Source: Halomonas sp. CUBES01
Lineage (GTDB): Bacteria; Pseudomonadota; Gammaproteobacteria; Pseudomonadales; Halomonadaceae
Assembly: GCF_020991005.1 (NCBI RefSeq)
Contig: NZ_JAJLLW010000002.1
Location: forward strand, 186,001 to 250,000
Length of the DNA: 64,000 nt
Direction: 5' to 3'
Each line of letters starts with the position of its first letter. The first letter of the stretch is position 1. Below, piece after piece: positions 26,308 through 54,373 of this stretch. The notes beneath the pieces are model-generated. The model made no database searches, was not told the DNA's origin, and worked only from the letters and a program-made list of their open reading frames with translations. The position numbers and the translations under genes were made by a program.

Positions 26308-26319
26308 GCCTGTGTTTTG

Positions 26320-27404: not shown

Positions 27405-27423
27405 AAATAATAACTATTGCTAT
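27405..27423. promoter_or_regulatory. Fur box upstream of the PvdS/FecI-type sigma gene
   Basis: AAATAATAACTATTGCTAT lies about 40 bases before the GTG start. It is nearly the same as the site before the intact siderophore receptor (minus-strand AAATAATAACAATTAGTAT, 57866-57884), with 16 of 19 bases equal. Both resemble the Fur consensus. Fur control of the sigma factor would make it iron-starvation induced. Confidence 0.75.
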
Positions 27424-27460
27424 TTATTCCGTGGTGTTAATCAAGGCAGGAGGCCAAACC

Positions 27461-27973: not shown

Positions 27974-28104
27974 GCCCACTTTAGTTATGCCTCCTTTGTT
28001 GTCGCTTTGTTACACTGTCATCAGATGGCTATAGCGTCGAAGAGCCTAGACGCTTCCCCAGGCAAGTATTGAGCGGACAGCAATAGCGAGGTTTGACAGT
28101 AACG

Positions 28105-28449: not shown

Positions 28450-28473
28450 TAAATTTTCTGGTTCCTCACACGT
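28450..28473 (+). promoter_or_regulatory. PvdS-type iron-starvation (IS) box upstream of mbtH
   Basis: TAAAT (28450-28454), exactly 16 bases, then CGT (28471-28473). This is the -35/-10 pattern TAAAT-N16-CGT known for PvdS-directed promoters in fluorescent pseudomonads. It sits about 65 bases before the mbtH ATG, in the only long gap ahead of the NRPS operon. Together with the adjacent PvdS-like sigma gene it strongly suggests that sigma factor drives the whole operon. Confidence 0.8.
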
Positions 28474-28477
28474 CATT

Positions 28478-28538: not shown

Positions 28539-28784
28539 ATGACAAGCTGTTTTGATCGTGAAGATGCTGTTTTCCGCGTATTAGTCAACCACGAAGAGCA
28601 GTACTCCCTCTGGCCGGAATGGAAAGCGATTCCTGCTGGCTGGACGGATACCGGTGTGCTCGGCGATAAGCCAACCTGCCTCGACTACGTCGAAAAGACC
28701 TGGACCGATATGCGACCACTGTCACTGCGCCAGTGGATGGATGAGCAAGCCAGTGCCGAGGCGGAGCAGGTGAATGCCGGTTAA
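28539..28784 (+). CDS. MbtH-family NRPS accessory protein
   Basis: 81 residues with the MbtH signature: [10 protein letters not shown] at about residue 18, then IPAGW and, later, [18 protein letters not shown]. MbtH-like proteins bind adenylation domains and are needed for their folding or activity. It is the first gene of the siderophore operon and overlaps the thioesterase gene by 11 bases. GAGG lies upstream of the ATG. The C-terminal tail (about 65-81) is Glu/Ala-rich and not part of the core fold. Confidence 0.96.
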
Positions 28785-29514
28785 ACGTTTAAGGCTGCTC
28801 TGCCTGCCCTGCGCCGGGGCCAGCGCCACCATGTATCTGCGCTGGAAGCGCCAGTTGCCCGCCTGGGTCGAGGTGTATCCCGTCGAATTGCCTGGGCGTG
28901 GCGAGCGCCTGGGTGAGCCGCTTATCGACGACTTCGAGACCCAGGTGGTGCGGCTGTGCGAAGAGCAAGCAACACGGATGCGCGGTGATTTTGCCCTGTT
29001 CGGCCACAGCATGGGGGCGCTGCTGGCCTACGGCATGGCGGCACGCTTGCGCGATGTGGGGCGCCCTCAGCCACGGATGTTATTCGCCTCAGGCAGTGCG
29101 GCGCCCTCAATGCGCGACCCAGAACGCTTGGCGGGGCTTGATAACGATAAGGCCTTAATCGCGGATCTGCGCCAACAGGGCGGCACTCCTGAGGAAGTCT
29201 TCGAAAGCCCTGAACTGCTGCGCCTTACCCTGGACGTGTTAGCAGCGGACTATCGCCTCTGCCGCAGTTTCCGCTATCGCGGCGGGTCGCCGCTTGCTTA
29301 CCCCCTACAGGTACTCGCTGGGCGTGAAGACGATATCGAGGAAGAGCGTCTGGAAGCGTGGCGGCGGGAAGCAGGCGGGGCGTTCTCTTTAAACTGGTTC
29401 AAAGGCGGCCACTTCTTTATTCGCCAGCAGCAAGCGCAAGTGCTGGAGACCATAGAACGTGCGCTGACCCGGCGGCTTGAGGAGGTGCCCCATGCAGCGC
29501 CTGCGGTTAGCTGA
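28774..29514 (+). CDS. Type II thioesterase of the NRPS cluster
   Basis: 246 residues with the alpha/beta-hydrolase TEII pattern: [16 protein letters not shown] at the start, [13 protein letters not shown], catalytic Ser in [12 protein letters not shown] (about residue 76), and catalytic His in FKGGHFFI near 210. Type II thioesterases remove wrong or non-natural groups from carrier-domain phosphopantetheine arms, keeping the assembly line running. It overlaps mbtH by 11 bases and the PPTase gene by 23, showing tight coupling. Confidence 0.94.
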
Positions 29515-30199
29515 AGGGGTGCCCGAGGGGCTTGAGGTCTGGTGCCTGGCGCTCGACCTGAATGCCCCGGTGGCCGACGACGATCGACTGCTGAGCCGAG
29601 CCGAGTGGCAGCGTGCCCAGCAGTTTCGCCATCACGCCGATGCCATCCGAGCCATGGCGACACGCGCTGCCCTGCGGCGACTGCTATCCGCGCGCACCGG
29701 TATAGCGCCAGAAAAGCTGGTGTTCACTCAGAACGCCTACGGTAAGCCAGAGCTGGAAAACGCTGAGGGGCCTGCTTTCAATGTTTCCCACTCTGGCCAT
29801 GTCGCCCTGATCGCGCTCGCTCCCGGCGGCGCGGTGGGGGTCGATATTGAGCGTCGCCGACCCGAGGACGAACTGGCGCCGTTGCATGGGCTGGTGCTAT
29901 CGCCTAGCGAGCAGCGTGATCACATTAGCGGCGCCAATCTCCCCTTTATGGAGCGCTGGGTGGTCAAAGAGGCGGTGCTCAAAACCCTGGGCCTTGGGAT
30001 TACCGATCATCTGCAGTCGCTCTCTATTACGTCCTCTTCAGGGCCGAACACCTATCACCTTGAGCACTCGCTTCCCGTGTCATCACCTCTGCAGGCATGG
30101 CCGCTGCCAGCGCCGAGTGGCTATGCCGCTGCCCTGGGTTATATCGACACAAGCTATCTCGACTCGGGCTATAGCGATCAAGGCTATGCCCAAGGTTAA
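29492..30199 (+). CDS. Sfp-type 4'-phosphopantetheinyl transferase
   Basis: About 235 residues. The three Sfp motifs are present: FNVSHSG near residue 90, VGVDIERR near 112 (Mg-binding Asp/Glu), and RWVVKEAVLKTLG near 155. It transfers phosphopantetheine from CoA onto carrier domains, converting the NRPS to its active form. I use the ATG at 29492 with GGAGG just upstream; five more codons are open before it. The C-terminal tail is an odd Tyr/Ser/Asp-rich repeat (SYLDSGYSDQGYAQG), probably flexible. Confidence 0.94.
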   Translation: MQRLRLAEGVPEGLEVWCLALDLNAPVADDDRLLSRAEWQRAQQFRHHADAIRAMATRAALRRLLSARTGIAPEKLVFTQNAYGKPELENAEGPAFNVSHSGHVALIALAPGGAVGVDIERRRPEDELAPLHGLVLSPSEQRDHISGANLPFMERWVVKEAVLKTLGLGITDHLQSLSITSSSGPNTYHLEHSLPVSSPLQAWPLPAPSGYAAALGYIDTSYLDSGYSDQGYAQG

Positions 30200-30230
30200 C
30201 GCTACTCAATGACTTTTTAGGAGATCAATA

Positions 30231-31232
30231 ATGGACAGCCAAAGCGCAACACTAACGCACCCAACCAACGCCATATCCCAACGTCAGGGGCCAGCTGATT
30301 CTGAGCTGCCCATGATGATTTCCCCCGCCTACCCAGGGCAGCCGCTGCTGGAAGCCTTCGACGATTTGCGTGCGGATATTGAGTCACTAGTGACCAAAGT
30401 GGGCGGCGTGCTACTGAGAGGCTTTGACGTTCCCGCCGTTGATGATTTTCAACAGTTTGCCGCCGCCTTTGGCCATCCGCTGCTGAGCTACGAGTTCGCC
30501 TCGACGCCACGCTCAGCGGTGTCATCGGGTATTTATACCTCCACCGAATACCCCGCCCATCAACATATTCCCCTTCACAACGAGCAGGCCTATACCCGTG
30601 AGTGGCCGATGAAAATCTGGTTCCACTGTGTCACCGCGTCACCCGAGGGGGGAGAGACGCCGATAGCCGATAGCCGTGCCATTTACCGCCGTATGCCGGT
30701 AGAGATTCGTGAGCGCTTTGCCCCCGGGATTCTCTACGTACGCAACTACGGCGATTTCGATATGCCTTGGCAAAAGGTGTTTAACACCGAAGACCGCGCT
30801 GAAGTGGAGGCATTCTGCCAGCGCGCGGGGATTCGCTGCGAATGGAAACCCGACGGCGACCTGCGTACCACCCAGCTATGCCAAGGCATAGAGACTCACC
30901 CGGTCACCGGTGAGCCGGTGTGGTTCAACCAGGGCCACCTTTTCCATGTCTCCAACCTGCAGCCAGAAGTACGTGAATCGCTGGAAGAGATGCTCGACCC
31001 CGAAGACATGCCGCGCAACGTTTTCTTTGCCGATGGCAGCCCCATTGACGATGCCATTTTCGATGAGATCCGCGGCGTAATGGCCGAGGAAACGGTGATG
31101 TTCCCCTGGCAGGCGGGCGATGTGCTGATGCTCGACAATATGTTGGTCGCCCACGCACGAACGCCGTTTAAAGGGCCGCGCAAAGTCGTTGTCGCCATGG
31201 CGGAAGGTCACGGCAACCTCTCCAACGACTGA
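30231..31232 (+). CDS. Stand-alone Fe(II)/2-oxoglutarate aspartyl beta-hydroxylase (SyrP/TauD-like, probable T-beta-H-Asp type)
   Basis: 333 residues of the TauD/TfdA clan, SyrP branch. Iron ligands are seen as HNEQ (His-x-Glu, about residue 116) and the distal His in DNMLVAHARTPF near 305. The Arg for 2-oxoglutarate is in GPRKVVVAM. In siderophore clusters, stand-alone enzymes of this type hydroxylate carrier-bound L-Asp at the beta carbon; the delftibactin enzyme gives L-erythro-beta-hydroxyaspartate. A second hydroxylase of the same fold is fused to the next gene, so two Asp residues are probably modified by different enzymes. Subtype and stereochemistry are inferences from architecture. 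Confidence 0.88.
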   Translation: MDSQSATLTHPTNAISQRQGPADSELPMMISPAYPGQPLLEAFDDLRADIESLVTKVGGVLLRGFDVPAVDDFQQFAAAFGHPLLSYEFASTPRSAVSSGIYTSTEYPAHQHIPLHNEQAYTREWPMKIWFHCVTASPEGGETPIADSRAIYRRMPVEIRERFAPGILYVRNYGDFDMPWQKVFNTEDRAEVEAFCQRAGIRCEWKPDGDLRTTQLCQGIETHPVTGEPVWFNQGHLFHVSNLQPEVRESLEEMLDPEDMPRNVFFADGSPIDDAIFDEIRGVMAEETVMFPWQAGDVLMLDNMLVAHARTPFKGPRKVVVAMAEGHGNLSND

Positions 31233-31277
31233 ACGCAACACTTTACCCCACGGCCAGGAACTCCAGCAGGTACGTAT

Positions 31278-34200
31278 ATGAATATTAGGCACGCTCAGAC
31301 AGTGAACAGCCGCCCGTCCCATAACGATGCTAGTCGCAATGACGCTTTTAGAAGCTATGTCGAGCATTTAAGTCGCCTGGCCCGGGAAAGGCCCAACGAC
31401 AGGGCGCTGACTGTGGTGAATGCTCAGGGTGAAACCACGCTTGACTACGCCACCCTGGAGCGACGTTCACGTGCCCTGGCCAGCGAGCTACAACAACGGT
31501 TCCCTGTGGGCGAGCGTGCCTTGATCCTGCTGGATAACGATGAACACTACGTGGTGGCGTTCTTTGCCTGTCTGTACGCCGGGGTGATTGCTGTGCCGGT
31601 CTTCCCACCGGAGTCGGCCAAGCAGCAGCACCTGGCACGTCTGTTTGCCATCGCCGATGATTCTCAGGCTGCCTGTGTGCTCACTTCTTCGACGATTATT
31701 GAGCTGGTTGCTTCAGCGGGAAAGGACTTCGGTAGCGCTGAATTGATCCCCGTAGATGCAGTAAACGAGGTCCTCGCTGACCATTGGGTCGAGCATCGCC
31801 CTAAGCGCGATGATATCGCCTTTTTGCAATATACCTCAGGCTCCACGGCCACGCCCAAAGGCGTTATGGTCAGCCATGGCAACCTAATGGCCAATGAGCG
31901 CGCTATCGAGACAGGTTTCTCGATTGGTGCTGATGATGTCTTCGTTAGTTGGCTACCGCTTTACCACGACATGGGGCTGATCGGCGGCCTGCTGCAGCCC
32001 CTCTATCGCGGTATTCCTGCGGTATTGATGAGCCCCACCTTCTTTTTGCAGCGGCCGGTACGTTGGCTGGAAGCGATTTCCCGCCACCGGGGCACCATTA
32101 GCGGTGGCCCCGATTTCGCTTATCGGCTGTGCCTTGATCGTATTCGCGACGAACAGATTGAAACACTCGATTTATCCAGCTGGCGGGTCGCCTTCTCAGG
32201 CGCCGAGCCGGTACGCCACGCAACCCTCACTGGCTTTATTGAACGCTTCTGCCCGGCGGGCTTCTCTGCTGATACCGCAGCCCCTTGCTATGGTCTAGCT
32301 GAAGCCACGCTGCTGGTTAGCTGTAATCCGCGCAGTACGGGCGTGGTGGGCACGACTTTTTCGCAACAGTCGCTGGCCGAGGGGAAGGCCGCCTCAGCGG
32401 TGGAAGGCAATACACTGGTGGACTGCGGCACCCCGGAGCCAGGCCACGCAATCGATATTGTCGATCCCGATGGGCTTCACTCGCTGCCCGAAGGCGACGT
32501 CGGCGAGATCTGGGTCCAAGGGCCCAGCGTGGCACAGGGGTATTGGCACAACCCTGAAGCCACGGCTAAAACCTTTGTTACCCGTGATGGCGTTAGCTGG
32601 CAACGTACCGGGGCTCACGATAGCGACGCTCACGATACCAATGCACAGGGCCACGACGCCCAAGACGATCGCTGGCTACGCACCGGCGATCTAGGCTTTT
32701 TACACCAAGGGCAGCTGTATATCGCCGGGCGTATTAAAGACCTGATCATTCTACGCGGCAATAACGTCTACCCCCAGGACATCGAGAGCGCTGTCGAGGC
32801 GGAAGTGGAAGCCGTGCGCAAAGGGCGCGTGGCGGCCTTTGCCGTGACAACACCGGAAGGCGCCGAAGGGATCGGCGTTGCGGCAGAAGTCTCCCGTGGT
32901 ATGCAGAAGCTGGTACCCGCTGAGAAGTTGATCGAGGCATTAAGGGAGGCGGTGGGATCCGCCTGCCATGAGCCGCTTTCTGTTGCGCTACTACTCAACC
33001 CCGGTGGCCTGCCCAAAACCTCCAGCGGCAAGCTACAGCGCAGCGCCTGCCGCCAAGGCTGGGAAGCGGGCAGCCTGGATGCCTACGCCATTCACGCCTT
33101 CGGGCATTTTGTCAGCGGTGGCGACGATAAGGACGCTGCTTCTGGAGAATCATCGCAATCTAGTGCGGAACCAGGGAGTGAAACGGAGCAGACGTTAGCG
33201 ACGCTCTGGCGCCAAGTGCTGGCAGACAGCAAGGAAACGCCACTGGGGAGTAATGCCCACTTCTTCGCCAGCGGGGGGAATTCGCTGGCGGCGGTGCAGT
33301 TGGCTTCACGCATTAGCGATCATTGGGCGATTGATTTCCCGACCAGATCGGTCATGGAAAAGCCGCGCTTTAGAGATGTGGTTGGTGAAGTAGAGCGCCG
33401 GTTAGCGAAGCCTTCGGCTTTTCGTCAGGGAGCTATCAAGAATCCACTGATGCCGATTCCCCGGAATTCGGAACTACCTTTGGCACCTGTCCAGCGCCGG
33501 CTCTGGCTGGTTGATCGCTTGGCAAGTCAGGCGGGCGACCGTGAGCGTGCAGCCTATAACCTTCCAGCGCTGTTTTCCCTGACAGGGGAGTTGAATATAG
33601 AGGTTCTGGAGCGAACCGTTAATGCCATCGTTGCGCGGCATGAAGCCTTGCGTACCCACTACCCCGAAAGTGAGCGTGGTGATCCCATTGCGGTTATCGA
33701 AGATCAGCTAAACATCGAACTGCCTGTTTTGGATTGCAGCGATCTTTCAGAGCAAGAACAGCAGCGATATCTGCAAGATACTTTCGCCGAGTATGCGAAC
33801 ACACCGTTAGACCTTGCCACTGGGCCACTAATTAAGGCGGGTTTACTGCGTTTTAGCGCACATGACCATGCCCTGGTCCTGGTCATTCACCACATCGTTT
33901 TCGACGGTTGGTCGACGAGCGTATTCATCCGGGAGTTTGCCACTCTGTACGGGGAGTTGTTGGAAGGGAAGGAATCCGAGTTACCCGAACTGGGCATTCA
34001 GTACGTGGACTACGCCGCTTGGCATGAGAAAGCACTGTCAGGAGCCGCCTTCGAGCAAAGTGCAACCTTCTGGCGTCGCTATCTAAGGAATGCTCCTCCG
34101 CTCTCATCACTACCAGCGGACTTCTCTAGGCCTAGCCAAGTCTCCCATGCCGGTAGTGCCCTCAGCATGACACTGAGTCCAGACCTATCACAAGCGTTGA

Positions 34201-35921
34201 ACAAGCTTGCCGCACAGCGTGGCACCACGCTATTTACCCTTCTATTGGCGAGTTTTCAGCTATTGATGCATCGCCAGACACGTCAACAAGACCTGGTGGT
34301 GGGAACCGATGTCGCTGGCCGTAGCCATCCCGATGTCGAGCCGCTAATTGGCTTTTTCGTCAATGTCATCCCACTACGATCTCGTTTGGCTGATGGCCAG
34401 CTTGATTTCGGCCACTGGCTCGAGCAAGTACAGACCAGCATGCTGGATGCCTTCGACCATCAAGACGTTCCCTTCGACAGAATTGTCGAACTTTCGGGAA
34501 TTAGCCGTGAGCGCGATCGCTCCCCCCTGATACAAACCCTCTTCGTACTACAAAACACGCCAACCGAGCGGTTCTCACTTCCGGGTCTTGAGGTGGAGGT
34601 AATGCCTCAACCCCGGCAGGAGTCGAAGTTCGATATGGCGGTATTCGTTGATGAAAGTGATACCGGACTATCAGTCGAGTGGGTCTACGCAACTGCCTTG
34701 TATCGACACGAAACCATCGAGTACTTGACCGGTGCCTGGCAGTCGCTACTAGCGCAAATCGTGGAAGCTCCCAGCACGCCCGTTGAGGAGTTTCGCTTAC
34801 CCCTAATGGAGAAACACGCTATGCAAAACAAGCTTTCAAAAGGTTCCAAACTCAACAAGCTTGGCAGCCTGAAATCCCAGCCAGGTGCGCGCCCCTCGAC
34901 CAACAGTGACTCACCAGTACGAACGGCGTTGTTTGACGAAAAAAGGGTCTTTCCCCTGGTGATCGAAGCGACGGATGCTGATCTTGATGCGGTGGCGTGG
35001 GCAACGTCCCAGCGTGACTTCATCGAACAGCACTTACGCACGCACGCAGGCATCCTGTTCCGTAACTTTGACCTTACCACGCCGCAAGAGTTTGAGGCCT
35101 TTGCCGAGGCTATCCAGCCGGGCCTTTACGGCAATTATGGCGACCTGCCCAAGAAAGAAGGGGGGCGTAATACCTACCGTTCAACCCCCTATCCCGAGCG
35201 CCAGATGATTCTTTATCACAACGAAAGTTCGCATTTGGAGCGCTGGCCGCGCAAACAACTGTTCTTCTGCGAGAATCCTTCTCCTGTGGGAGGCGCCACC
35301 CCGATCGTTGACTGCCGCGAGATGCTGCGCCAACTCCCCGCCGACGTGGTGGAGGAGTTCGAGCGCAAAGGGCTGCTTTATGTGCGCACCTTCACCCGCA
35401 ACCTGGACGTGAGCTGGCGAGACTTTTTCAAAACCGACAGCAAAGAGGAGGTGGAAGCGCGGCTCAAAGAAGCGGGAATCGAATGGCAGTGGTTGGGTGA
35501 TGACGAGCTGCAGACACGTACGCACTGTCCTGCGGTAGTTACCCATCCCGTGACCGGTGACCGAGTGTTCTTCAATCAGGTGCAGCTCCACCACGTCAGC
35601 TGCCTTGAGCCTGATGTGAAAGAAGACCTGCTTGGCATGGTTGGCCCGGAGCGCCTGCCGCGCAATGTCTATTTCGGTGATGGCTCCGTGATTAGCGACG
35701 AGATAATGAAGGTTGTCGGCGAGGCCTACGAAGCTTGTGCGGTGCGCTTCGACTGGCGCCGGGGCGATGTGGTGATGGTCGACAATATGTTAGCGGCCCA
35801 TGCCCGGGATCCCTACGAGGGGCCACGCAAAATCGTGGTGGCGATGGGAGACATCTATGAGCGTTCGGCGCTGGAAGAGGCCCAAGGGGCAAGTGCCGAT
35901 GCCGAGTTGGTCGATCAATAA
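31278..35921 (+). CDS. NRPS 1: fatty acyl-AMP ligase - carrier - condensation - fused aspartyl beta-hydroxylase
   Basis: 1547 residues. Domains: FAAL (about 25-600; YTSGSTATPKGVMVSHGNL, and WLPLYHDMGLIGGLLQPLYRG typical of acyl-AMP ligases); carrier (about 625-700; FASGGNSLAAVQ); condensation (about 730-1165; HHIVFDGWS intact near 871); then a linker and a TauD/SyrP-like dioxygenase (about 1215-1530; iron ligands in LYHNESSHLERW near 1314 and MLAAHARDP near 1506). The FAAL loads a fatty acid on the first carrier, and the condensation domain joins it to the first amino acid on NRPS 2. A hydroxylase at the C-terminus of an NRPS is the reported 'I-beta-H-Asp' layout, linked to L-threo-beta-hydroxyaspartate. 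No adenylation domain for amino acids is present in this protein. Confidence 0.92.
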   Translation: MNIRHAQTVNSRPSHNDASRNDAFRSYVEHLSRLARERPNDRALTVVNAQGETTLDYATLERRSRALASELQQRFPVGERALILLDNDEHYVVAFFACLYAGVIAVPVFPPESAKQQHLARLFAIADDSQAACVLTSSTIIELVASAGKDFGSAELIPVDAVNEVLADHWVEHRPKRDDIAFLQYTSGSTATPKGVMVSHGNLMANERAIETGFSIGADDVFVSWLPLYHDMGLIGGLLQPLYRGIPAVLMSPTFFLQRPVRWLEAISRHRGTISGGPDFAYRLCLDRIRDEQIETLDLSSWRVAFSGAEPVRHATLTGFIERFCPAGFSADTAAPCYGLAEATLLVSCNPRSTGVVGTTFSQQSLAEGKAASAVEGNTLVDCGTPEPGHAIDIVDPDGLHSLPEGDVGEIWVQGPSVAQGYWHNPEATAKTFVTRDGVSWQRTGAHDSDAHDTNAQGHDAQDDRWLRTGDLGFLHQGQLYIAGRIKDLIILRGNNVYPQDIESAVEAEVEAVRKGRVAAFAVTTPEGAEGIGVAAEVSRGMQKLVPAEKLIEALREAVGSACHEPLSVALLLNPGGLPKTSSGKLQRSACRQGWEAGSLDAYAIHAFGHFVSGGDDKDAASGESSQSSAEPGSETEQTLATLWRQVLADSKETPLGSNAHFFASGGNSLAAVQLASRISDHWAIDFPTRSVMEKPRFRDVVGEVERRLAKPSAFRQGAIKNPLMPIPRNSELPLAPVQRRLWLVDRLASQAGDRERAAYNLPALFSLTGELNIEVLERTVNAIVARHEALRTHYPESERGDPIAVIEDQLNIELPVLDCSDLSEQEQQRYLQDTFAEYANTPLDLATGPLIKAGLLRFSAHDHALVLVIHHIVFDGWSTSVFIREFATLYGELLEGKESELPELGIQYVDYAAWHEKALSGAAFEQSATFWRRYLRNAPPLSSLPADFSRPSQVSHAGSALSMTLSPDLSQALNKLAAQRGTTLFTLLLASFQLLMHRQTRQQDLVVGTDVAGRSHPDVEPLIGFFVNVIPLRSRLADGQLDFGHWLEQVQTSMLDAFDHQDVPFDRIVELSGISRERDRSPLIQTLFVLQNTPTERFSLPGLEVEVMPQPRQESKFDMAVFVDESDTGLSVEWVYATALYRHETIEYLTGAWQSLLAQIVEAPSTPVEEFRLPLMEKHAMQNKLSKGSKLNKLGSLKSQPGARPSTNSDSPVRTALFDEKRVFPLVIEATDADLDAVAWATSQRDFIEQHLRTHAGILFRNFDLTTPQEFEAFAEAIQPGLYGNYGDLPKKEGGRNTYRSTPYPERQMILYHNESSHLERWPRKQLFFCENPSPVGGATPIVDCREMLRQLPADVVEEFERKGLLYVRTFTRNLDVSWRDFFKTDSKEEVEARLKEAGIEWQWLGDDELQTRTHCPAVVTHPVTGDRVFFNQVQLHHVSCLEPDVKEDLLGMVGPERLPRNVYFGDGSVISDEIMKVVGEAYEACAVRFDWRRGDVVMVDNMLAAHARDPYEGPRKIVVAMGDIYERSALEEAQGASADAELVDQ

Positions 35922-35946
35922 AGTCACGGGGTTTGGGAGTCAATAA

Positions 35947-38900: not shown

Positions 38901-39135
38901 CATGACCGAGCTACTTGGTCGCGATGAGATAGGCATTGAAGACGACTTCTTCGAACTGGGTGGGCACTCCTTGCTGGTGATCAAGCTGGTAGCTCGCATC
39001 CGTAAGCAGTTCGGAATCGAGATAGCTCCTGGCGTGGTATTTGATCATCCCACCGTCGTCGAGCTGGGTGCCGTTCTACGCGAGAGTTGTGCTGAGGCTA
39101 GTACGAGCGGTCTAGCCGAGCTTGATAGCAACTGA
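35947..39135 (+). CDS. NRPS 2: degenerate condensation/interface domain - A(Asp) - carrier
   Basis: 1062 residues. The first 430 look like a condensation-superfamily fold, but the catalytic HHxxxDG position reads VSALVADRGS, with both His residues lost, so it cannot condense normally. This fits the non-catalytic 'interface' domain proposed to dock a beta-hydroxylase, and the preceding protein ends in such a hydroxylase. The adenylation domain (about 460-960; LYTSGSTGTPKG) gives the specificity residues D-L-T-K-I-G-H-V-G by alignment to PheA, matching the aspartate code. The carrier contains [13 protein letters not shown] near residue 1005. Predicted product of the module: aspartate, hydroxylated while carrier-bound. 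The interface assignment is inference. Confidence 0.9.
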   Translation: MNAITEQQSLAHWPLSPEQRAVLVAAEANESDTQQAASAQVDVMVVDIQGALNSSRLERALSDLRQQHEALSTALKSVAGYRGLRHQALENLPAIEWQHEDLRGSDDKEALLNDFLNIYRESMKRRPLALESGELMRPALLQTGETTWVLVLAVSALVADRGSLQSLFSALADAYDQSEGADEDSALQYSQFIEWRASLENDDDAKAGREYWQRHQQHAEQAGACRLPARQANRHGVRVEHEYVDLELEPDLVARIDSLADELQVSAEAVLQAAWWALLVRISGNERVLGGWQHDCRQDYEVMQGAIGLFDKVLPVLVEGVADSDFSGWIARLSEQLEAHTQAQEYWSIDALPDKRHLAVGFAFSEEVSELKSAGLQWRLREVPGPSTEFELALHVGRSESGVVATLYADPSCYSLAAAECLLDQYHTLLKAGLADPAQKLFSVPLISPEQQQGLLSIGDNVLDVGERSVAAHIAAWAASTPDAIAIEEQGRTLSYAQLEARVNNIARWLDGQGVKHGDYVALNLPRSTDLVVLLLAVWRVGAAYLPLDTEWPVDRKRRVLEDAQPALVVSAENVEAELAALALPGIHSVGLPQEVEEVGGALPFPEPELGDVAYLLYTSGSTGTPKGVVIEHGQLLNYVAGATKVMGLSVCQRWTLTGSLATDLVNTALFGALFNGARLVIATPDDMQDGDHFARFMSAADIDALKIVPSHLEALLECEAPRLPKTLILGGEAASPALLSSIARISPECQLYNHYGPTEATVGVMVHPVSLSQDIQGPLPLTQLLPNCRYRVLDDNLQATPTGAMGELYLGGAQLARGYLNSDASAFVEDPFIDGERLYRTGDLACVLPEGGVRLIGRADDQIKLRGFRIEPAEIESVLQAQPGVKQSLVRLMGRGGDTQELVAFLIADAEVTSVEGQAQLREQLTVLLPEPMRPSRFIPVEHFPRLGNGKVDTTALEALAQKTAESKTLVKPRDAVEATLCQAMTELLGRDEIGIEDDFFELGGHSLLVIKLVARIRKQFGIEIAPGVVFDHPTVVELGAVLRESCAEASTSGLAELDSN

Positions 39136-39193
39136 GTAGCCAAATTTGCCTAATAACATCATTTGTAACGCGGTACAGGAAGAGGATTTAGTG

Positions 39194-42475: not shown

Positions 42476-42478
42476 AGC

Positions 42479-45400: not shown

Positions 45401-48400
45401 CTGGAGGCTCTGCCGCTAACCGCCAATGGTAAGTTGGATCGCAAGGCGCTGCCTGAGCCGGTGCAAACCAGTAGTGGCAAAGCCTTTGAAGCTCCCCAAG
45501 GAGAAGCAGAAGAGGCGTTGGCAGCGGTTTGGGCTGACGTGATCGGCTGCGAGCAGGTGGGGCGTAATGACAACTTTTTCGAACTGGGTGGCGACTCCAT
45601 CCTCAGCCTGCAGATCGTCGCGCGCTCTCGTAAGCGTGGCTACAAGGTAACGCCCAAACAGTTGATGGAAGGGCAGACCATCGCTGCCGTGGCGGCGATG
45701 GCCACGCCCCTGGCGGCGGCCGTACCTAAACAAGTGGTTGCGCCCGATAAGGTGGCTCCCTTTGCACTGCTGCCGACACAGCGCTGGTTCTTCGAGCAGA
45801 ACTTTGCCGAGCCACACCACTGGAATCAGTCGTTGATGCTGGAAGCGGCCAGTGGTGTGGATGCCACGCTGTTACGGCGTGCCATTGAGGCAGTGGTCGA
45901 TCATCATGGCGCCTTGCGGCTGCACTTTGAGCGCATCGACGATCGCTGGCAACAAGCCTATGGCAAGCTAGCCGATGACCTCTTCGAGCACCTCGACTTG
46001 AGCGATCATGCGGATCCAACGCAGGCCATCACCCAGGCCGCCGATGCTGCGCAACGCAGTCTGAGTTTGGCGCGGCCGTTCCGTGCCATCTGGATGGCAC
46101 TGGGAGGCGAGCATGGCGGACGACTGCTGCTAGTGGCTCACCACCTGGTGGTAGATGGCGTCTCGTGGCGCGTGATTCTCGACGACCTGCAAGCGGCCTA
46201 CACGCAGTTAAGTGCAGCAAAGGCGCTCGACCTACCACCAGCCACCACTTCGCTAGATGAGTGGGCGCGCACCCTGGCCGACTACGCCACATCGGAGGCG
46301 TTGGCTGAGCAACGCCCCTATTGGGAAAGCCTCGTCAACGAGCCAGAGCCTAGCCTACCGGCACAGAATCTCCAGGGCAGCAACACCGTTGCCGATACCG
46401 CATCACTTGCAGGCAGCTTGTCTACTGAGGCAACCACGCAACTGCTGGGGCCGGTGCATAAGGCCTACCGTACCCAAGTGGATGACCTGTTGCTCACGGC
46501 ACTTTCGAGCGCCCTATGCCAATGGGCGGAGCGAGACAGCGTACTGATCGAACTGGAAGGTCATGGCCGCGAAGACCTGTTCGAGGGTATCGACCTCAGT
46601 CGCAGCGTGGGCTGGTTCACATCCCTCTACCCAGTTCGCCTGAGACCGGGTAATGCGGAGCCGGGTTCGAGGCTAAAAGCAATCAAAGAGCAACTTCGCC
46701 AAGTGCCTGACAAGGGGCTCGGTTACGGCGTGCTGCGCTATTTGAAAGAGGAACCCGCGCTGGTCGGTGGCGCCTACCCCCAGGTCACCTTCAATTATCT
46801 AGGCCAGTTTGACCGCTCTCTGCAGGGCGATGCGGCCTGGAAACTCGCCAAAGAGAACGCCGGGCAGCCCCGCGCGGCGCAAAATGAGCGCCGGACTTGG
46901 ATTGAGGTGGTGGCCTGGGCTCAAGATGGCCAACTGCGCTTCGACTGGCATTACAGTCGTGAGATTCACAGCGAGGCAGCGATACATGCCTTGCAAGCAA
47001 GCTTCCAAGCGCAACTAGAGGCATTGATTGAGCACTGTGACAGCGGCGTTCGTGGCGCCACGCCATCCGACTTCCCGCTGGCGGGGCTGAGTCAGGCGCA
47101 GTTGGATGATTTGCGATTGGATGCCACCAATGTTGAGGACATCTACCCGCTGGCACCGATGCAGCAAGGGCTACTATTGCATACCCTGCTCAATCCAGGC
47201 GCGGGTATGTACATGATGCAGGATCGCTACCGGTTTGCTTCGCCGATTGATATCAATGCTTTTGAGAAAGCCTGGCAACGAGTCGTCGAACGGTATGAGG
47301 TTTTACGTACAGGATTCGTCTGGCAAACCGAAGACATGCAGTTGCAAGTGGTGTATCGGCAAGTTCCTTCGCCCGTGGAATATATCGATTGGCACGGCAC
47401 GGACGAGGATGAGGCTGATCGTCGCTTGTCGAAGTTATTGCGCCAGGAACTTGATGATGGCTTCGATCTGGAAAGGCCACCACTGCTCAAGGTACGCCTT
47501 ATTCAACTGGCGGAGAACCTGTTCTACGTCGTACAGAGTTTCCACCATATTCTGATGGATGCCTGGTGCCGCTCCCTGTTGCTCAGCGATTTCTTCCACT
47601 ACTACGATGCCTATCGTCTAGGTACGCGTCATGAGCTGACGCAACCAAGGCCTTATCGTGATTTTATCGCTTGGTTGCAGCAACAGGATGTCAATGTCCT
47701 CCGCAACTATTGGCAACATGAGCTTGAAGGTTTCGATGAGGTAACACCAATTCCTTATCTTAAACCGCACGGTTCGCTCGACAGTGTTGCCACGGTGGCC
47801 GATGTATTCTCTTCTCTCTCCCACGATGAGAGTGTAGAGCTACAGAACGTTGCTCGACAGCATCAATTGACTGTCAATACGATCGTACAAGGGGCATGGG
47901 CACTGCTGTTAGGGCGGCTTTCCCAGGTGGATGACATCCTATTCGGCGTGACAGTGGCTGGGCGCCCGCTAGAACTTGAGGGCATACAGGAGACGGTTGG
48001 GTTGTTTATCAACACGATTCCACTGCGGGTTTCAGCGCCTTTGCCGCAAACCTCCGTCCTTGAGTGGCTGCATGGGCTATTGGCGAAAAACCTGGAGGTG
48101 CGCCAATACGAGCACCTGCCGCTAGTAGAAATCCAATCGTTGGGAGAGGGGGTACAAGGGCGCAGTCTATTCGATAGTCTTTTTGTTTTTGAGAACGCTC
48201 CGGTAGATGCCAGCTTGACTGGGAAAGGGCAAGACTTCCAGGTAGCAATCAAAGGCAACCGCACGCATACCAACTATCCTTTGACTGTCGTAGTCATGCC
48301 TGGAGATGAGTTAACACTGCAGCTCTCCTACGATGCGCGTAAATTCGAAGGTGCCGAAGTTGAGTGTTTGCTCTCGGAGTTCCGCCAAGTTCTTTTGCAA

Positions 48401-51400
48401 ATTATCGACAGCCCTGACGCTCCATATCACGAATTGGAAGTGATGCCAGCAGGGGAGGTAAAAACGCAATTAATGCAAAGAAGTGGAGCGTCGGTTGCTT
48501 ATCCCTTTGAGCGAGGCTATATCGAGCTGTTCCGTGAGCAGGTACGACAGCATCCACGCCAAGTTGCCGTTCGCCACGAGGGAGAGTTGCTCACTTATGA
48601 TCAGCTAGAAGGCACCTCTAATCGCATTGCCCAGTCACTGCGGGAAGTAGGGGTGAAGAAGGATGACGTCGTGGCTCTGCATGCCGAGCGTGGCTTGGCG
48701 TTACCGAGCATGATTCTGGGTACGTTCAAGGCTGGCGGTGCGTATCTAGCGTTGGATACACGGCTTCCTGATCAGCGTATCGCCGATATGCTGTCTAGCC
48801 AGGCATCGGTTCTGGTTGCCACTGCTGAGCAAACACCGCGTCTCGAAGCTGTGCTTGCATCCATGCCCAACCCACCGCAGATGTTTGTGTTCGAAGATCT
48901 CGTCCTGGCGGAAGGGCTAGAGGGGGATATCACCGTACCGGTGCACCCAGATCAGGCTGCCTATGTCATCTATACCTCCGGTTCGACCGGTGAACCCAAG
49001 GGCGTAGTCGTTAGTCATCGTGGCATGCTCAATAACCAGTTGAGCAAGGTTCCCTACCTGGGTCTGTCGGCCAGCGATGTCATCGCCCAGACTGCAGCGC
49101 TGAGTTTCGATATCTCCGTCTGGCAAACGCTGACGGGACTGTTGTGTGGAGCCAGCATCGAGATCGTGCCTGATGAGATTGCACGCGATCCCAGTGCGTT
49201 GCTTCCTTATGTGCGCGATAACGGTGTCACAGTACTGCAAAGCGTACCTGCAGTGATACAGGGAATGTTGAATACTACCTCAGTCGACCTGCCAGCACTG
49301 CGCTGGTTGCTGCCTACGGGCGAAGCCTCAACGTATGAACTAGTGCGCCAATGGTTTGCACGCTATCCAGCGATCCCATTGGTCAATGCCTATGGCCCTG
49401 CAGAATGTGCCGATGACGTATCCCTGCACTTGCTGCGTAGCGACAATGACGAGCATGTAGCTGTGGTGCCAATCGGTAAACCGGCCGATAACACCCAGCT
49501 ATTCGTCCTAGACAACCAACTGAATCCGTTACCAACGGGGGTGAGTGGCGAGCTATATGTCGCCGGTGTTGGGGTTGGGCGGGGTTACCTGAATCAGCCG
49601 CAGCTGACGGCGGAGCGCTTCGTGCCCAACCCGTTTGCCGATGTGCCTGGGGAGCGGCTCTACCGGACAGGCGATCTGGCCCGCTACCGCACCGATGGGG
49701 CTATTGAATACATCGGACGCACCGATCAACAGGTCAAGATCCGGGGGCAGCGTCTCGAACTCGGTGAGATCGAGTCCCGGTTGGTGGAGTTCGAAGAAAT
49801 CCGTGATTCGGTAGTGGTGGCTCAGGAAGGGCCAGGAGGAGCCAGGTTAGTGGCTTATGCCGTTGCCCAGCCACATGAATCGATCGATACGGCTGAGCTA
49901 CGCGAACGTCTGGGGCAGGTATTGCCGGACTATATGGTGCCAAGTTTGGTGATGATGCTCGATGCCTTGCCACTAACGCCCAACGGCAAGGTGGATCGCA
50001 AGGCATTGCCAGAGCCGGACTTCACCAGTAGTTCGCAATACGAGCCGCCCCAAGGTAAGACGGAAGAGGCGCTGGCGGCGATTTGGAGCGAGGTGCTGGG
50101 TGTCGAGCAGGTAGGGCGTCACGACAACTTCTTTGAGCTAGGGGGACACTCTCTGTTGGCACTGAGTGTGCTTGAGCGTATGCGAGTTCGAGGGCTGGAA
50201 TCTCAAGTACGGACGTTGTTCCAGTCGCCAGAACTAGCAGCCTTTGCCAAGGCGCTGTCCATAGAGCCTGATAGGAAAAAACTGGTTGTACCGCCCAACA
50301 GGATTCCAGAGCATTGTCAGTCGATCCAGCCGGACATGCTGACACTGATCGATTTGGATACTGATGAAATCAGTCGCATAGAAGATGCAGTGCCAAGCGG
50401 AGCGATCAATATCCAGGACATCTACCCTCTGGCACCGTTGCAGGAGGGTATCCTGTTCCATCACCGATTACAGCAAGAGGGTGACACGTATGTACTCCCT
50501 TGCTTACTTGGTTTTGATAGCCAGGAACGGCTTGAGCAGTTCGTTGCTGGTTTCAATCAACTTATTGCCCGTCACGATATTCTGCGCACTGCAGTGCTCT
50601 GGGAAGGGCTTCATGAACCAGTACAAGTAGTGTATCGGCACGCCTCACTAGAGGTGGAGTGGCTAGAGCTGGAAGAACCCGATACCTCGTGCAGCGTTTC
50701 CGAACGACTAAACGCCCATGTTGATCCTGAGCATTATCGCATCGATGTACGCCAGGCGCCGATGGTGCGAGCTATTGCGGCACAAGATGCTGAGCAAGGG
50801 CGATGGCTGCTGCAATTGCCCAGCCACCACCTGGTGCTCGATCACACCACACTTGATCTGCTAGTGGACGAGATTGCCTTAATCCAGCAAGGGCGAGAAG
50901 GAGAGCTACCCAAACCGCTGCCATTCCGAAACTTCGTAGCACAGGCAAGGTTGGGAGTGAGTCAGACAGAGCATGAAGCCTTCTTTAGAGAAAAATTGGG
51001 CGATGTTGAGGAGCCTACTGCTCCATTCGGATTACTGGATGTACGTGGCGATGGCAGTGGCATTGAGGAGATTCGCCTACCACTGACAGCAGAACTGGCC
51101 CAACAAGTTCGACAGCAAGCACAGCGACATGGTGTCAGTACCGCTACCCTATTTCACTTAGCTTGGGCGCAAGTGCTGAGTAAAACGACAGGGCGGGACG
51201 ACGTGGTGTTCGGCACTCTACTATTTGGCCGTATGCAAGGTAGTGAGGGCGCCGAAAGAGCACTTGGAATGTTCATTAACACGTTACCTATTCGTATTAG
51301 ACTAGGTGCTAACAGCGTGGGCGGCTGTTTACGCCAGACCCATAGCGAGTTGGCCGAATTGTTGAACCACGAGCATGCTAGTCTCGGACTAGCACAGCGA

Positions 51401-54373
51401 TGCAGCGGAGTAGGTGGAGGATCACCACTGTTCTCAACCTTACTGAACTATCGTTATAGTGCTCTAGAGGAGAATGCAACTAGCCGGGCGTGGGAGGGGA
51501 TGAAAGCCCTGGGCAATCGGGGGCGTACTAACTACCCAATTGTGATGTCAGTAGACGACTTTGGCGAGGGGTTCCAGCTGGTGGCGCAGGTTAGCCACAA
51601 ACTCGGGGCTCAGCGGTTGTGTGATTATATGTGTGCGGCACTGGTCGGCATTGTAAATAGTCTTCAAAAGGCGCCTCAGCAATCATTGAGCGATATCAGC
51701 CTGCTAGGAAAAGACGAAAGGCAATTGTTGAACGAGTGGGGAGAGAGCTTACTCCAGCATCCCAGTGGTCAGCCAGTCCACCGAATGATTGAATGCCAAG
51801 CCATGAAGACGCCAGAGGCAATGGCATTGATCTTCTCAGAGCACCGTCTCAGCTACGGCGAGCTTAATATTCGTGCCAACCGTTTAGCGCACTATTTGAT
51901 TGGCTTGGGTGTGCGCCCTGAAACCCGGGTGGGCATTGCCGTTGAGCGTTCTATCGAGATGGTAGTAGGGCTATTGGCTGTTCTCAAAGCTGGCGGTGCA
52001 TATGTGCCGCTGGATCCTGATTACCCCACTGAACGGCTTGCTTATATTGCCGAAGACAGTGGCATCGAACTGCTCCTGACCCAACAGTTTCTTCGCGAGA
52101 TTTTGCCAGTCTCGGAAAGTCTGAGCGTTATTGAGTTGGATCAGTTGGATGTCACGCATCACGCCTCGACAAACCCTTCGGTGGCGATCCACGGCGAGCA
52201 CCTCGCCTATGTGATTTACACCTCAGGCTCCACCGGGCGACCCAAGGGCGCCGCCATCCGCCATAATGCCTTGACCAACTGCATGGTCTGGATGCAGGAG
52301 ACCTATCAGCTCAATGAGTCAGATGCTGTCTTGCATAAGGCGCCCTTCGGTTTTGACGTCTCCGTATGGGAGATTTTCTGGCCATTGAGTGCCGGAGTTC
52401 GCCTCGTGGTAGCTCAACCAGGCGATCATCGGGATCCAGAACGCATCATCGAGTTGATCCAGCGGCACGGCGTTACCACGCTCAATTTTGTGCCCTCAAT
52501 GCTCAAGGCCTTCCTGGCCTATCCCGATGTTAAGACCAATACGCGGCTCAAGCATATTATGTGTGGTGGTGAGGCCGTTCCAGCCACGCTGCAGCAGGAC
52601 GTGGCTGAGTGTCTCGAAGGTGCCAATCTGCATGATCTTTATGGTCCTACTGAAACCACTATTCATGTCACTCACTGGTGGTGCCGTGATGACGCGCACC
52701 GTCAGATCCCCATTGGGCGACCCATTAGCGGTACCCGCACCTACGTCTTGGATGGTGAACTCAGCCTGGTACCCCAGGGCGTCACGGGAGAGCTCTATAT
52801 CGGAGGGGTAAGCCTGGCCCGTGGCTATCTCAATCGCAGTGGTCTCACAGCGGAGCGTTTTGTCGCTGATCCGTTCACGGAGGGCGAGCGCCTCTACCGT
52901 ACGGGGGACCTGGTGCGCTGGCGGGAGGATGGCCAGCTTGAGTACCTGGGTCGTCTTGATCACCAAGTGAAGATCCGCGGCCTGCGTATAGAACTAGGTG
53001 AGATCGAAGCCGAGCTGTTGGCTCAACCGGAGATTCGCGAAGCGGTAGTGGTTGCACAGGAAAGTCCTAGTGGCTCGAGGCTAGTGGTCTATGTGGTGCC
53101 TCAAGCCGAAGGTGGGCTCGATACCCGCGCACTACGTGAAGCGCTGGGCCAAACTCTACCGGATTATATGGTGCCGGGCGTCGTGATTACGTTGGATGCA
53201 CTGCCGTTGAATGCCAATGGCAAGGTGGATCGTAAAGCGTTGCCCGAGCCGGATCTAGAGGAAATTCGCGAGTATGTGGCACCCTCTACCTCGGAAGCCC
53301 AGCAGCTCGCCGAGATATGGCAAGAAGTGTTGGGTGTTGAACGGGTCGGTGAGACCGACAACTTCTTCGAGTTGGGCGGGGACTCCCTGCTGAGCTTGAA
53401 AGTGATGGGGCGCGTGCAAGCACTGCGGAAACCTAGACTTAACTTCAAATTGTTCGACCTAATGCAGAAACCGACCATTGCGGATCTGCTGGGACTGAGG
53501 GGTAACAGCGAGTCGCTGCCCAAAGGGACTGTCATGCTCAACGGTGAGTGTCCCGATCAGCCGCCGCTATTCTGCATCCATGCTGTGATGGGAACGGTTT
53601 ACGACTATCAACCGTTGGCCCGACACCTGCAGGGAATATGTACGGTCTATGGACTGCCGTGCCGGATGCTAACTGATCCTGAGCATCAAGACTCGTCGCT
53701 GGAGGCAATGGCGGATGCCTATGTTGAGACAATACGCCGCATACAGCCTATGGGGCCCTATCGGCTATTGGGTTGGTCCCTTGGTGGGGCATTGGCGGCG
53801 ATGATCGCGGCACGGCTTGAAAGGGTAGGGCAAGATGTAAGCCATTTGGCTTTGATAGACCCCTATATACCTGGCGTTGGCCTCCACAGTGAGGATAGCT
53901 GGGAGAGAGATTTCGTTAACTTTGCATCGATAATACTGCCAGGCGTTGACCTTGAAACGCATGATGGTAATGAAGAGAGCGTGCAAGAACCGAGTGAGGA
54001 GAAGGTTGCCATTAAGTTGTCGAGGCTAATGGAATCATTCGATGCATATGGTCGTGAGGGCTACGCAGCTTTGGATAACGAGGAGCTTGCTCGAATATTC
54101 TGTGTGGCGAGATACTTGAAAAAGCTCTCCCTCCAAATTGATACTTTGCCAAAGTTGAGTTGCAACATAGGTTGCTGGTGGTCAGAAGAGCGTCTGCAAA
54201 AAGAACAACAAGCGTTAGCTCAACAGGTAGGGCAAGTGCCAGATCTTACTATTGAGGTTTCCGAGGGGCATTTCTCTATCGTCTCCAGTGATTCCGTGTT
54301 GCCGCAGGTGGTGGAAAAGCTGCAAGAGGAGACTCATCCATCGAGACATGTAGAGGAGAGCTCAATGGTTTGA
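42479..54373 (+). CDS. NRPS 4: C-A(Asp)-T-E-C-A-T-C-A-T-TE, terminal synthetase
   Basis: 3964 residues, three modules. Module 1: C (45-470, HHIACDGWS), A (495-1000; code D-L-T-K-I-G-H-V-G, Asp), T (GGDSILSL, ~1037), E (1085-1530; [20 protein letters not shown]), so D-Asp. Module 2: C (1550-1985, FHHILMDAW), A (2010-2500; D-I-W-Q-L-T-A-D-D, two acidic residues suggesting a basic substrate such as Dab or Orn), T (GGHSLLAL). Module 3: C (2640-3080) whose start reads [10 protein letters not shown], near the HH(I/L)xxxxGD mark of dual epimerisation/condensation domains, with HHLVLDH at the main motif; A (3100-3590; D-V-W-N-M-G-L-I-H, tentatively N-hydroxyornithine); T (GGDSLLSL); TE (3690-3950; GWSLGG, EGHFS) for release. 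It begins three bases after NRPS 3. Confidence 0.93.

What the first reader, a model, noticed from the sequence alone, without database searches (positions are those of the whole stretch)
28539..54373. Lipopeptide siderophore assembly line predicted to make acyl-OHAsp-Ser-D-OHAsp-X-(acyl-OH-Orn)
Seen: a FAAL start, five amino-acid A domains with pocket residues matching Asp, Ser, Asp, an unassigned acidic pocket (DIWQLTADD) and DVWNMGLIH, one E domain and a TE. Known: beta-OHAsp and hydroxamate are bidentate ligands. Inference: two OHAsp and one hydroxamate give a hexadentate, amphiphilic and photoreactive chelator related to the cupriachelin/aquachelin type, but with only five residues.
Basis: partly seen in the sequence, partly recalled or inferred. 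Interest (0 to 1): 0.85.

Follow-up and report, generated by a model that had tools for sequence, protein, structure and literature searches.

The report
Cupriachelin-like siderophore cluster in Halomonas
A salt-loving bacterium carries a complete enzyme assembly line that should make a five-amino-acid, fatty-tailed iron scavenger of a known type (close to cupriachelin), built by mixing parts found in its relatives' assembly lines; it is a good new member of a known kind rather than something unprecedented.

Summary
In detail: one FAAL-initiated, five-module NRPS line (window 28539-54373), holding all condensation domains found in the genome, with two Asp-type, one Ser-type, one DIWQLTADD and one DVWNMGLIH pocket, one E domain and a TE. 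(1) Both aspartate beta-hydroxylase types are present: one fused before an 'interface' domain (residue 1), one stand-alone (residue 3). (2) Residue 4 is most likely 2,4-diaminobutyrate (Dab): its pocket is closest to PvdL's (DIWEMTADD), follows the Asp-T-E module in 11 of 11 annotated clusters that carry it, and the genome has ectABC as a Dab source. (4) 'Only five residues' is no difference: cupriachelin A is itself reported as OHAsp, Dab, OHAsp, Gly, acyl-OH-Orn. The predicted acyl-OHAsp-Ser-OHAsp-Dab-(acyl-OH-Orn) keeps ligands at 1, 3 and 5. A relative in another genus (G084) has the same five codes in order. The cluster is a mosaic of a starter and a terminator found apart in other Halomonadaceae. 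Product, stereochemistry and residue 4 are predictions.

The parts
27383..27973 (+). FecI/PvdS-like ECF sigma factor
   Evidence: NCBIfam/Pfam sigma-70 hits; found at 53-97% in 13 of 13 P2 relatives
28093..28311 (+). 72-aa protein made of a FecR N-terminal (DUF4880) domain only
   Evidence: PF16220; found in 13 of 13 P2 relatives at 57-92%
28450..28474 (+). TAAAT-N16-CGTC box, likely promoter of the synthetase operon for the ECF sigma factor
   Evidence: present 85-89 bp before the mbtH ATG in 14 of 14 clusters; not unusual by count in the window alone
28539..28784 (+). MbtH-like protein
   Evidence: PF03621, E 2.9e-23
28774..29514 (+). type II thioesterase
   Evidence: PF00975, E 9.1e-44
29477..30199 (+). 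4'-phosphopantetheinyl transferase
   Evidence: PF01648/PF22624, HetI-type hit below cut-off
30231..31232 (+). stand-alone aspartate beta-hydroxylase (TbetaH-Asp type), assigned to residue 3
   Evidence: TauD PF02668 E 3e-49; gene present in 10 of 10 clusters (own included) with an Asp-T-E module, not found in the held stretches of 3 of 3 complete lines without one
31365..33110 (+). FAAL domain (P1), loads the fatty acid
   Evidence: best solved chains: a chain labelled polyketide synthase (7r7e-g), saframycin synthetase B, then fatty acyl-AMP ligases such as FadD32
33189..33386 (+). acyl carrier domain (P1)
   Evidence: PF00550
33471..34808 (+). C domain (P1), HHIVFDG
   Evidence: PF00668 E 8.3e-112, motif
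34962..35843 (+). fused aspartate beta-hydroxylase (IbetaH-Asp type), assigned to residue 1
   Evidence: TauD PF02668 E 1.7e-48
35980..37314 (+). interface domain (P2): condensation-like with SALVADRG in place of HHxxxDG
   Evidence: same place in 13 of 13 P2 relatives; SAL-x-ADRG in 13 of 15 copies, the copies of G013 and G004 do not fit the pattern; after a fused hydroxylase also in Variovorax and Eleftheria, 2 of the 4 plasmid-collection hits examined
37348..39075 (+). A (DLTKIGHVG, Asp) and T: residue 1
39146..42475 (+). P3: C-A(DVWHVSLID, Ser)-T: residue 2
42617..45700 (+). P4 module: C-A(DLTKIGHVG, Asp)-T(GGDSI): residue 3
45761..47056 (+). epimerization domain acting on residue 3
   Evidence: HHLVVDG, preceding T motif LGGDSI; EGHGRE and NYLG in the sequence
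47132..50266 (+). P4 module: DCL-type C after E, A (DIWQLTADD, probably Dab), T: residue 4
50414..51733 (+). Dual-type (condensing and epimerizing) C domain
   Evidence: HHRLQQEGD near the N terminus, 96-residue T-C spacing, no E domain before it
51770..53506 (+). A (DVWNMGLIH, N-modified OH-Orn) and T: residue 5
   Evidence: one change from DVWNIGLIHK, listed for modified Orn in PMC12283262
53561..54343 (+). thioesterase domain, GWSLGG
   Evidence: PF00975, sequence
54509..55420 (-). FhuD-like ferric hydroxamate binding protein
   Evidence: below the NCBIfam cut-off
55694..57823 (-). TonB-dependent siderophore receptor (FauA/FhuE-like)
   Evidence: TIGR01783 over cut-off; 72-81% to the three relatives with the same cassette order at the start, 29-52% to seven others
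57941..59233 (-). ornithine N5-monooxygenase
   Evidence: PF13434 E 9.4e-123
59257..60369 (-). GNAT hydroxyornithine N-acyltransferase
   Evidence: PF13523 E 5.3e-56
60464..60488 (-). TAAAC-N16-CGTC box before the acyltransferase operon
   Evidence: found in 10 of 11 clusters whose region is held; not in G259
60497..62215 (+). cyclic-peptide/siderophore ABC exporter
   Evidence: TIGR01194, 467 bits, over cut-off
25336..26367 (-). second FhuD-like binding protein, possible member
   Evidence: PF01497; in the held stretches a close copy (82% and 66%) only in G283 and G292

Best explanation
An iron-regulated lipopeptide siderophore pathway of the cupriachelin kind. The FAAL activates a fatty acid. 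P1/P2 add Asp, which the fused hydroxylase, docked by the interface domain, turns into (predicted) L-threo-OHAsp. P3 adds L-Ser. The first module of P4 adds Asp, which the stand-alone hydroxylase hydroxylates and the E domain epimerises (predicted D-threo-OHAsp). The next module adds X, most likely Dab, turned to D by the Dual C domain. The last module adds N5-acyl-N5-hydroxy-Orn made by the monooxygenase and the GNAT protein, and the TE releases the chain. The peptide acyl-OHAsp-Ser-OHAsp-Dab-(acyl-OH-Orn) has bidentate ligands at positions 1, 3 and 5 for Fe(III). The exporter sends it out; the TonB receptor and FhuD-like protein bring the iron complex back. Shown: genes, domains, codes, motifs, their conservation. 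Inferred: chemistry, stereochemistry, function.
For: Domain order and codes. The stand-alone hydroxylase tracks the Asp-T(GGDSI)-E module: 10 of 10 with, 0 of 3 complete lines without, and 9 of 9 further clusters with the module, though G249's copy is distant, 54%. The interface-A-T protein follows a C domain fused to a hydroxylase in 15 of 15 copies in 14 clusters and in Variovorax and Eleftheria. Dual C: 96-residue T-C spacing in 25 of 25 measured, 24 of them with the N-terminal HH-x5-(G/S/R)D motif, against 63-69 in 19 other C domains measured and 80 in one, in line with about 92 against 60 in PMC10212144. X: best single-domain solved match PvdL with DIWEMTADD; DIWELTADD in two clusters, of which G249's order fits marinobactin, OHAsp-Dab first; ectA, ectB, ectC in the genome. 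Cupriachelin contains OHAsp, Dab and OH-Orn too. TAAAT-N16-CGTC box in 14 of 14.
Against: No product measured. The X pocket has Gln where PvdL has Glu (278), and the Q-type domains form their own group (window domain 77-91% to 8 Q-type relatives, 54-55% to the two E-type), so another substrate is possible. In bokeelamides an Asp module with an E domain gave L-erythro, not D-threo, OHAsp (PMC11574851). The acyl on OH-Orn in cupriachelin is 3-hydroxybutyryl, so acetyl is not assured, and its Orn was assigned D. The GNAT gene also occurs in lines that end in DGEAVGGVT or DGEACAGVT, so its presence does not identify the last residue. A-domain codes alone do not prove hydroxylation: G019, G033 and G080 have an extra Asp module with neither interface nor E. 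The clusters compared are related, so counts are not independent.
Confidence: 0.8

Rival explanations
1. Same line, but residue 4 is not free Dab: N-gamma-acetyl-Dab (the ectoine intermediate), diaminopropionate, beta-hydroxy-Dab or Gln.
For: Pocket has Gln278 instead of Glu and the Q-type domains form a separate group. PMC12283262 lists DVWQMIGDDK for beta-OH-Dab and says Dap codes are 80% like Dab codes. EctA, which makes N-gamma-acetyl-Dab, is in the genome.
Against: D330 and D331 are kept, the best pocket match among solved domains is PvdL's, and the likely Gln codes in the relatives are of another type, DAEYIGAIS (compare DAEYVGSITK for Gln in PMC10391617).
Confidence: 0.3
2. Residue 3 is L-erythro-OHAsp because the E domain is inactive or skipped on the hydroxylated residue.
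For: Bokeelamides: E domain in the Asp module yet L-erythro found. Cupriachelin and potashchelin carry L-threo plus L-erythro.
Against: E motifs are intact here, the next C domain is of the kind that follows E domains in this set, apart from one without E in G283, and loihichelin from Halomonas has D-threo-OHAsp.
Confidence: 0.3
3. The TE makes a cyclic OH-Orn or a macrocycle and the GNAT protein does not act on the last residue.
For: Potashchelin has monooxygenase and acyltransferase genes yet ends in cyclic N-OH-Orn.
Against: Terminal code is DVWNMGLIH, also used at internal positions in relatives such as G021, G028 and G003, where a cyclic OH-Orn could not be extended.
Confidence: 0.15
4. 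A lipopeptide with a role other than iron uptake.
For: No experiment.
Against: Receptor, FhuD-like protein, exporter, ECF sigma factor and boxes in the same cluster.
Confidence: 0.02

Closest known systems
Cupriachelin (Cupriavidus necator; PMC10484230, passages)
   Same: Five residues, two OHAsp and one N-acyl-N-OH-Orn, read as positions 1, 3 and 5 from the order listed in the passages; one Dab, N-terminal fatty acid; L-threo and L-erythro OHAsp point to both hydroxylase types.
   Different: Cupriachelin is OHAsp-Dab-OHAsp-Gly-OHOrn; here OHAsp-Ser-OHAsp-X-OHOrn with X probably Dab, plus E and Dual C domains. Cupriachelin genes were not compared here.
Potashchelins (Halomonas sp. MG34; PMC7100376, abstract and sections 18, 19, 21)
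   Same: FAAL-ACP-C-TauD then C-A(Asp)-PCP start, OHAsp-Ser start, stand-alone TauD, MbtH/TEII/PPTase set, same group of bacteria.
   Different: Nine residues, no E domain reported, cyclic OH-Orn end.
Marinobactins/formomarinobactins (PMC13037486, passages)
   Same: Asp/OHAsp followed by Dab, FAAL start, TauD, Orn monooxygenase, GNAT in the acetylated forms.
   Different: Six residues, one OHAsp and two OH-Orn.
Loihichelins/aquachelins (Halomonas; PMC6836290, passages)
   Same: Amphiphilic OHAsp plus hydroxamate siderophores of Halomonas; loihichelin has D-threo-OHAsp.
   Different: Loihichelin is an octapeptide with one OHAsp; their clusters were not available here.
Bokeelamides (Ectopseudomonas khazarica; PMC11574851, passages)
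   Same: Five-module, CoA-ligase-started OHAsp plus hydroxamate lipopeptide.
   Different: AcOHOrn-OHAsp-Ser-Ser-cyclic OHOrn: one OHAsp, two Orn.

Membership tests
cupriachelin-type lipopeptide siderophore pathway | FAAL-ACP start | tested here: met
cupriachelin-type lipopeptide siderophore pathway | five modules with OHAsp-forming Asp modules at 1 and 3 and OH-Orn at 5 | tested here: met
   codes and order; OH-Orn by code similarity only
cupriachelin-type lipopeptide siderophore pathway | one fused and one stand-alone aspartate beta-hydroxylase | tested here: met
cupriachelin-type lipopeptide siderophore pathway | Dab at 2 and Gly at 4 | tested here: not met
   Ser-type code at 2, Dab-like code at 4: a sibling, not cupriachelin itself
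cupriachelin-type lipopeptide siderophore pathway | product binds Fe(III) and is photoreactive | not testable with these tools
   needs the compound
siderophore interface domain | condensation-like domain next to a fused beta-hydroxylase and A(Asp), without HHxxxDG | tested here: met
   SALVADRG, position; no reference interface sequence of a characterised cluster was at hand
Dual (C/E) condensation domain | N-terminal HHxxxxxGD-like motif, long T-C linker, no E domain before it | tested here: met
   HHRLQQEGD, 96 residues
Dual (C/E) condensation domain | D residue in product | not testable with these tools
   needs Marfey analysis
Dab-activating A domain | DIWE-type acidic pocket (PvdL DIWEMTADD) | tested here: inconclusive
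   DIWQLTADD: Glu278 is Gln and Met299 is Leu, rest like PvdL
potashchelin | nine modules, no E domain | tested here: not met
   five modules, one E
marinobactin | six modules OHAsp-Dab-Ser-OHOrn-Ser-OHOrn | tested here: not met
   G249 fits that order instead

The most novel reading that the evidence does not exclude
The Gln278 pocket of the X domain is tuned to the ectoine intermediate N-gamma-acetyl-Dab, so that in these halophiles the siderophore is a side branch of the osmolyte pathway and iron scavenging is tied to salinity. The weaker form, plain Dab taken from EctB with no aminotransferase gene seen in the cluster, is likely (about 0.6) but less surprising.
Probability: 0.08. Interest if true: 0.65.

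Novelty: new member of a known kind. Interest (0 to 1): 0.4.

Why it matters
It gives a precise mass and sequence prediction for what looks like an unreported siderophore of a common marine and saline genus. The comparison of 23 clusters (this one included) shows how such siderophores diversify: two kinds of hydroxy-Asp cassette are placed at different positions and joined to shared starters and terminators, and the receptor is most alike where the cassette order at the start is the same. That makes it a testable model of how an NRPS line and its uptake receptor change together.

Tried and rejected
Considered and rejected: that the E domain is a second interface domain (it has intact E motifs and is followed by a DCL-type C). 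That the P2 N-terminal domain is an ordinary C domain (motif lost). That five residues is unusual (cupriachelin, bokeelamide, and the G084 and G259 lines also have five; G067 and G254 have four). That the Variovorax locus L220 would anchor the OH-Orn code: its Orn-like codes are DGEDHGTVT and a partial DGE..., not DVWNMGLIH, so it did not. That the receptor simply follows the planar order OHAsp-Ser-OHAsp: G003, G005, G292 and G259 have that order with the cassettes reversed, and receptors of only 29-48%. Box counting in the window alone was not significant; only conservation across clusters made it convincing.

Led nowhere: paper searches for the pocket codes (one search found only DVWNIGLIH; none) and for the interface domain with all four terms (none). 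The Variovorax stretch L222 and passages of PMC12904278 and PMC12971057 added nothing decisive. Reitz et al. 2019 and Kreutzer et al. 2012 were not read; their statements are recalled or taken as quoted in the papers seen. The TAAAT-N16-CGT consensus of PvdS, the Stachelhaus positions, the Dab assignment of the PvdL module in 9lcp/9up2, the HH-x5-GD Dual motif and the EGHGRE, NYLG and GXSXG motifs are recalled. Not done: structure prediction, a tree of the hydroxylases or interface domains with characterised references, a look at the Janthinobacterium and Nostoc hits.
Full report
What is there. The window lies in a 3.6 Mb, 30-contig genome. Its relatives under the same genus label include contigs whose lengths match named Halomonas and Vreelandella records (for example 131524 bases, Halomonas sp. 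SpR1), so the host is of that group. All 7 condensation-superfamily matches in the genome lie in this cluster. The genes run: ECF sigma factor, a 72-aa FecR-N-terminal protein, MbtH, type II thioesterase, phosphopantetheinyl transferase, stand-alone TauD-type hydroxylase, P1 to P4, then on the other strand FhuD-like protein, TonB receptor, Orn monooxygenase and GNAT acyltransferase, and an exporter on the + strand.

Domains and codes. P1 FAAL-ACP-C-TauD; P2 interface-A-T; P3 C-A-T; P4 C-A-T-E-C-A-T-C-A-T-TE. Codes: DLTKIGHVG, DVWHVSLID, DLTKIGHVG, DIWQLTADD, DVWNMGLIH, each with Lys517; GrsA itself gave DAWTIAAIC.

Comparison set. P2 was sought in 275 family genomes; 14 including this one match at E up to 1e-180. 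The X-pocket segment was sought in the same 275; 12 including this one match at E up to 1e-38, and in 369 genomes drawn from the class, of which 2 match, this one included. I annotated the clusters of all 14 P2 genomes and of 9 of the 10 further X-pocket genomes (G214 was left out; its four matches were 45-56% identical). Lines not complete in what I held: G004, G008 and G262; G069 is cut after its third complete A domain; the FAAL of G292 and most of that of G259 lay outside the stretches annotated.

Two hydroxylases, two kinds of Asp module. In the 14 P2 clusters the interface-A-T protein (15 copies, two in G021) always follows a C domain fused to a TauD-type hydroxylase. The stand-alone hydroxylase is present (88-95% in relatives) in all 10 clusters with a C-A(Asp)-T-E module and was not found in the held stretches of G021, G028 and G081, which lack that module; G004 is cut and not counted. 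The 9 further clusters all have both, G249 with a distant copy. In the 14 clusters the T domain before every E domain carries GGDSI, the motif that PMC10391617 ties to the stand-alone type. These clusters are related, so the counts are not independent events. From the literature (abstract and section 18 of PMC7100376; PMC10391617) the fused type gives L-threo and the stand-alone type L-erythro OHAsp; epimerisation at the alpha carbon of the latter would give D-threo. PMC11574851 says so as precedent and reports an exception. PMC10999976 states that the hydroxylase domain embedded in VarG generates erythro-OHAsp, which sits oddly with the fused rule and is left open.

Residue 4. For the whole A domain the top five solved sequences by total score are LgrA entries (about 633 bits summed over two stretches); PvdL follows with 490 bits in one stretch. 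For the pocket segment PvdL is first, 167 bits against 90 for the next, and the alignment reads DIWEMTADD. I recall that this is PvdL's Dab module; PMC12195549 gives the order Glu-Tyr-Dab for PvdL(ORF1) of Pseudomonas fulva. In all 11 clusters with a DIW(Q/E)LT(A/T)DD domain that I annotated (this one, G084 and nine others) the domain directly follows the Asp-T-E module. Two of them, G069 and G249, have Glu at 278; G249's order Asp-DIWELTADD-Ser-DGEACAGVT-Ser-DGEACAGVT fits the order Asp-Dab-Ser-OHOrn-Ser-OHOrn of PMC13037486. The genome has ectA, ectB and ectC side by side on another contig; 1 of 8 matches to the EctB family passes its cut-off (the 14 control genomes also match, none over the cut-off). 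So Dab is the best reading, with Gln278 as the open point.

Stereochemistry of residue 4. The C domain before the last A domain has HHRLQQEGD near its start, no E domain before it, and a 96-residue spacing from the T motif. Of the spacings that the script could measure, 25 Dual-like C domains all gave 96 (24 with the motif, one in G081 without), 19 other C domains gave 63-69, and one in G283 gave 80; three Dual-like ones (G008, G262) could not be measured. PMC10212144 reports about 92 for Dual and 60 for LCL. Hence a Dual domain and a D residue 4. P2 and P3 end in LGGHSL and are followed by non-Dual C domains, so residues 1 and 2 should stay L.

Residue 5. DVWNMGLIH differs by one residue from DVWNIGLIHK, which PMC12283262 names among codes for N-modified Orn. 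If it and the DGEA-type codes are counted as hydroxamates, and Asp modules with interface or E as OHAsp, every complete line that I read reaches at least three bidentate groups; here exactly three. The monooxygenase and GNAT genes occur in 11 of 11 P2 clusters whose region is held, including lines without DVWNMGLIH, so they do not by themselves identify residue 5.

Mosaic. Domain by domain, P1 to P3 are 85-98% identical to G283, G013 and G021. The C2-A(X) part of P4 is 87-91% identical to G254, G019, G033, G281, G017 and G080, but only 37-44% to the best counterparts in G283 and G013. G067 and G254 carry the same terminator OHAsp-X-OHOrn behind a one-residue Orn-type starter. G084, in another genus, has the same five codes in the same order with an additional E domain after Ser. 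The receptor is 72-81% identical in G283, G013 and G084, the three relatives that start like the window with interface-type Asp, Ser, E-type Asp, and 29-52% in the other seven with a held receptor. Four of those seven (G003, G005, G292, G259) have the same planar start with the two cassettes in reverse order, so the receptor goes with cassette order rather than with planar sequence.

Regulation. TAAAT-N16-CGTC stands 85-89 bp before the mbtH ATG in 14 of 14 clusters and TAAAC-N16-CGTC before the acyltransferase operon in 10 of 11, a shape that I recall for PvdS-type sigma factors. By count alone the window has no excess.

Relation to known compounds. The prediction here is a sibling with positions 2 and 4 changed to Ser and probably Dab. 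Four searches of the held open-access library (10, 20 of 26, 12 and 1 papers listed) showed no title or abstract opening that names this pentapeptide; most listed papers were not opened, and papers outside that library were not searched. Of the papers cited, section texts were read for PMC7100376 and PMC12283262; for the others only passages.

Changes made on checking: the receptor statement was narrowed from planar order to cassette order, several identity ranges were corrected, and the Dual motif count is 24 of 25, not 25.

Noticed in passing
window 28093-28311: A 72-aa protein with only the FecR N-terminal (DUF4880) domain next to the ECF sigma factor, found in 13 of 13 P2 relatives: a mini anti-sigma factor rather than a decayed FecR.
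   Followed up: partly
window 28450-28474 and 60464-60488: Conserved PvdS-like promoter boxes before mbtH (14 of 14 clusters) and before the acyltransferase operon (10 of 11).
   Followed up: yes
L115-L117 (G021): A line with two fused-hydroxylase plus interface-A-T cassettes and no stand-alone hydroxylase found; codes read Asp-Ser-Gly-Asp-OHOrn-Ser-Ser-OHOrn.
   Followed up: partly
L189-L192, L199-L200, L212 (G019, G033, G080): An extra Asp-type module with neither interface nor E domain, so probably plain Asp: OHAsp-X-Asp-OHOrn-Ser-OHOrn.
   Followed up: no
L203-L204, L211, L213 (G249): A marinobactin-order cluster in the same family as the window's genome, with a distant stand-alone hydroxylase downstream.
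   Followed up: no
L193-L194 (G254): The synthetase reading frame is split within the Asp module (1032 and 3025 aa frames); frameshift or assembly error not resolved.
   Followed up: no
L141-L142 (G005): The P2 homologue lies in two frames (153 and 917 aa), although the strain's assembly is one contig; not resolved.
   Followed up: no
L147-L148 (G084): The E domain after the second Asp module reads HHLVIDS instead of HHxxxDG; may be weakened.
   Followed up: no
window 23641-25224: AAA-ATPase-like protein with a PD-(D/E)XK domain (PF09820, PF08011) between the zinc uptake genes and the siderophore cluster.
   Followed up: no
window 17771-22573: Imelysin and DUF1513 genes followed by zinc-uptake-type ABC genes (ZnuA, ABC-3 permease, ATPase): a metal-uptake neighbourhood.
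   Followed up: no
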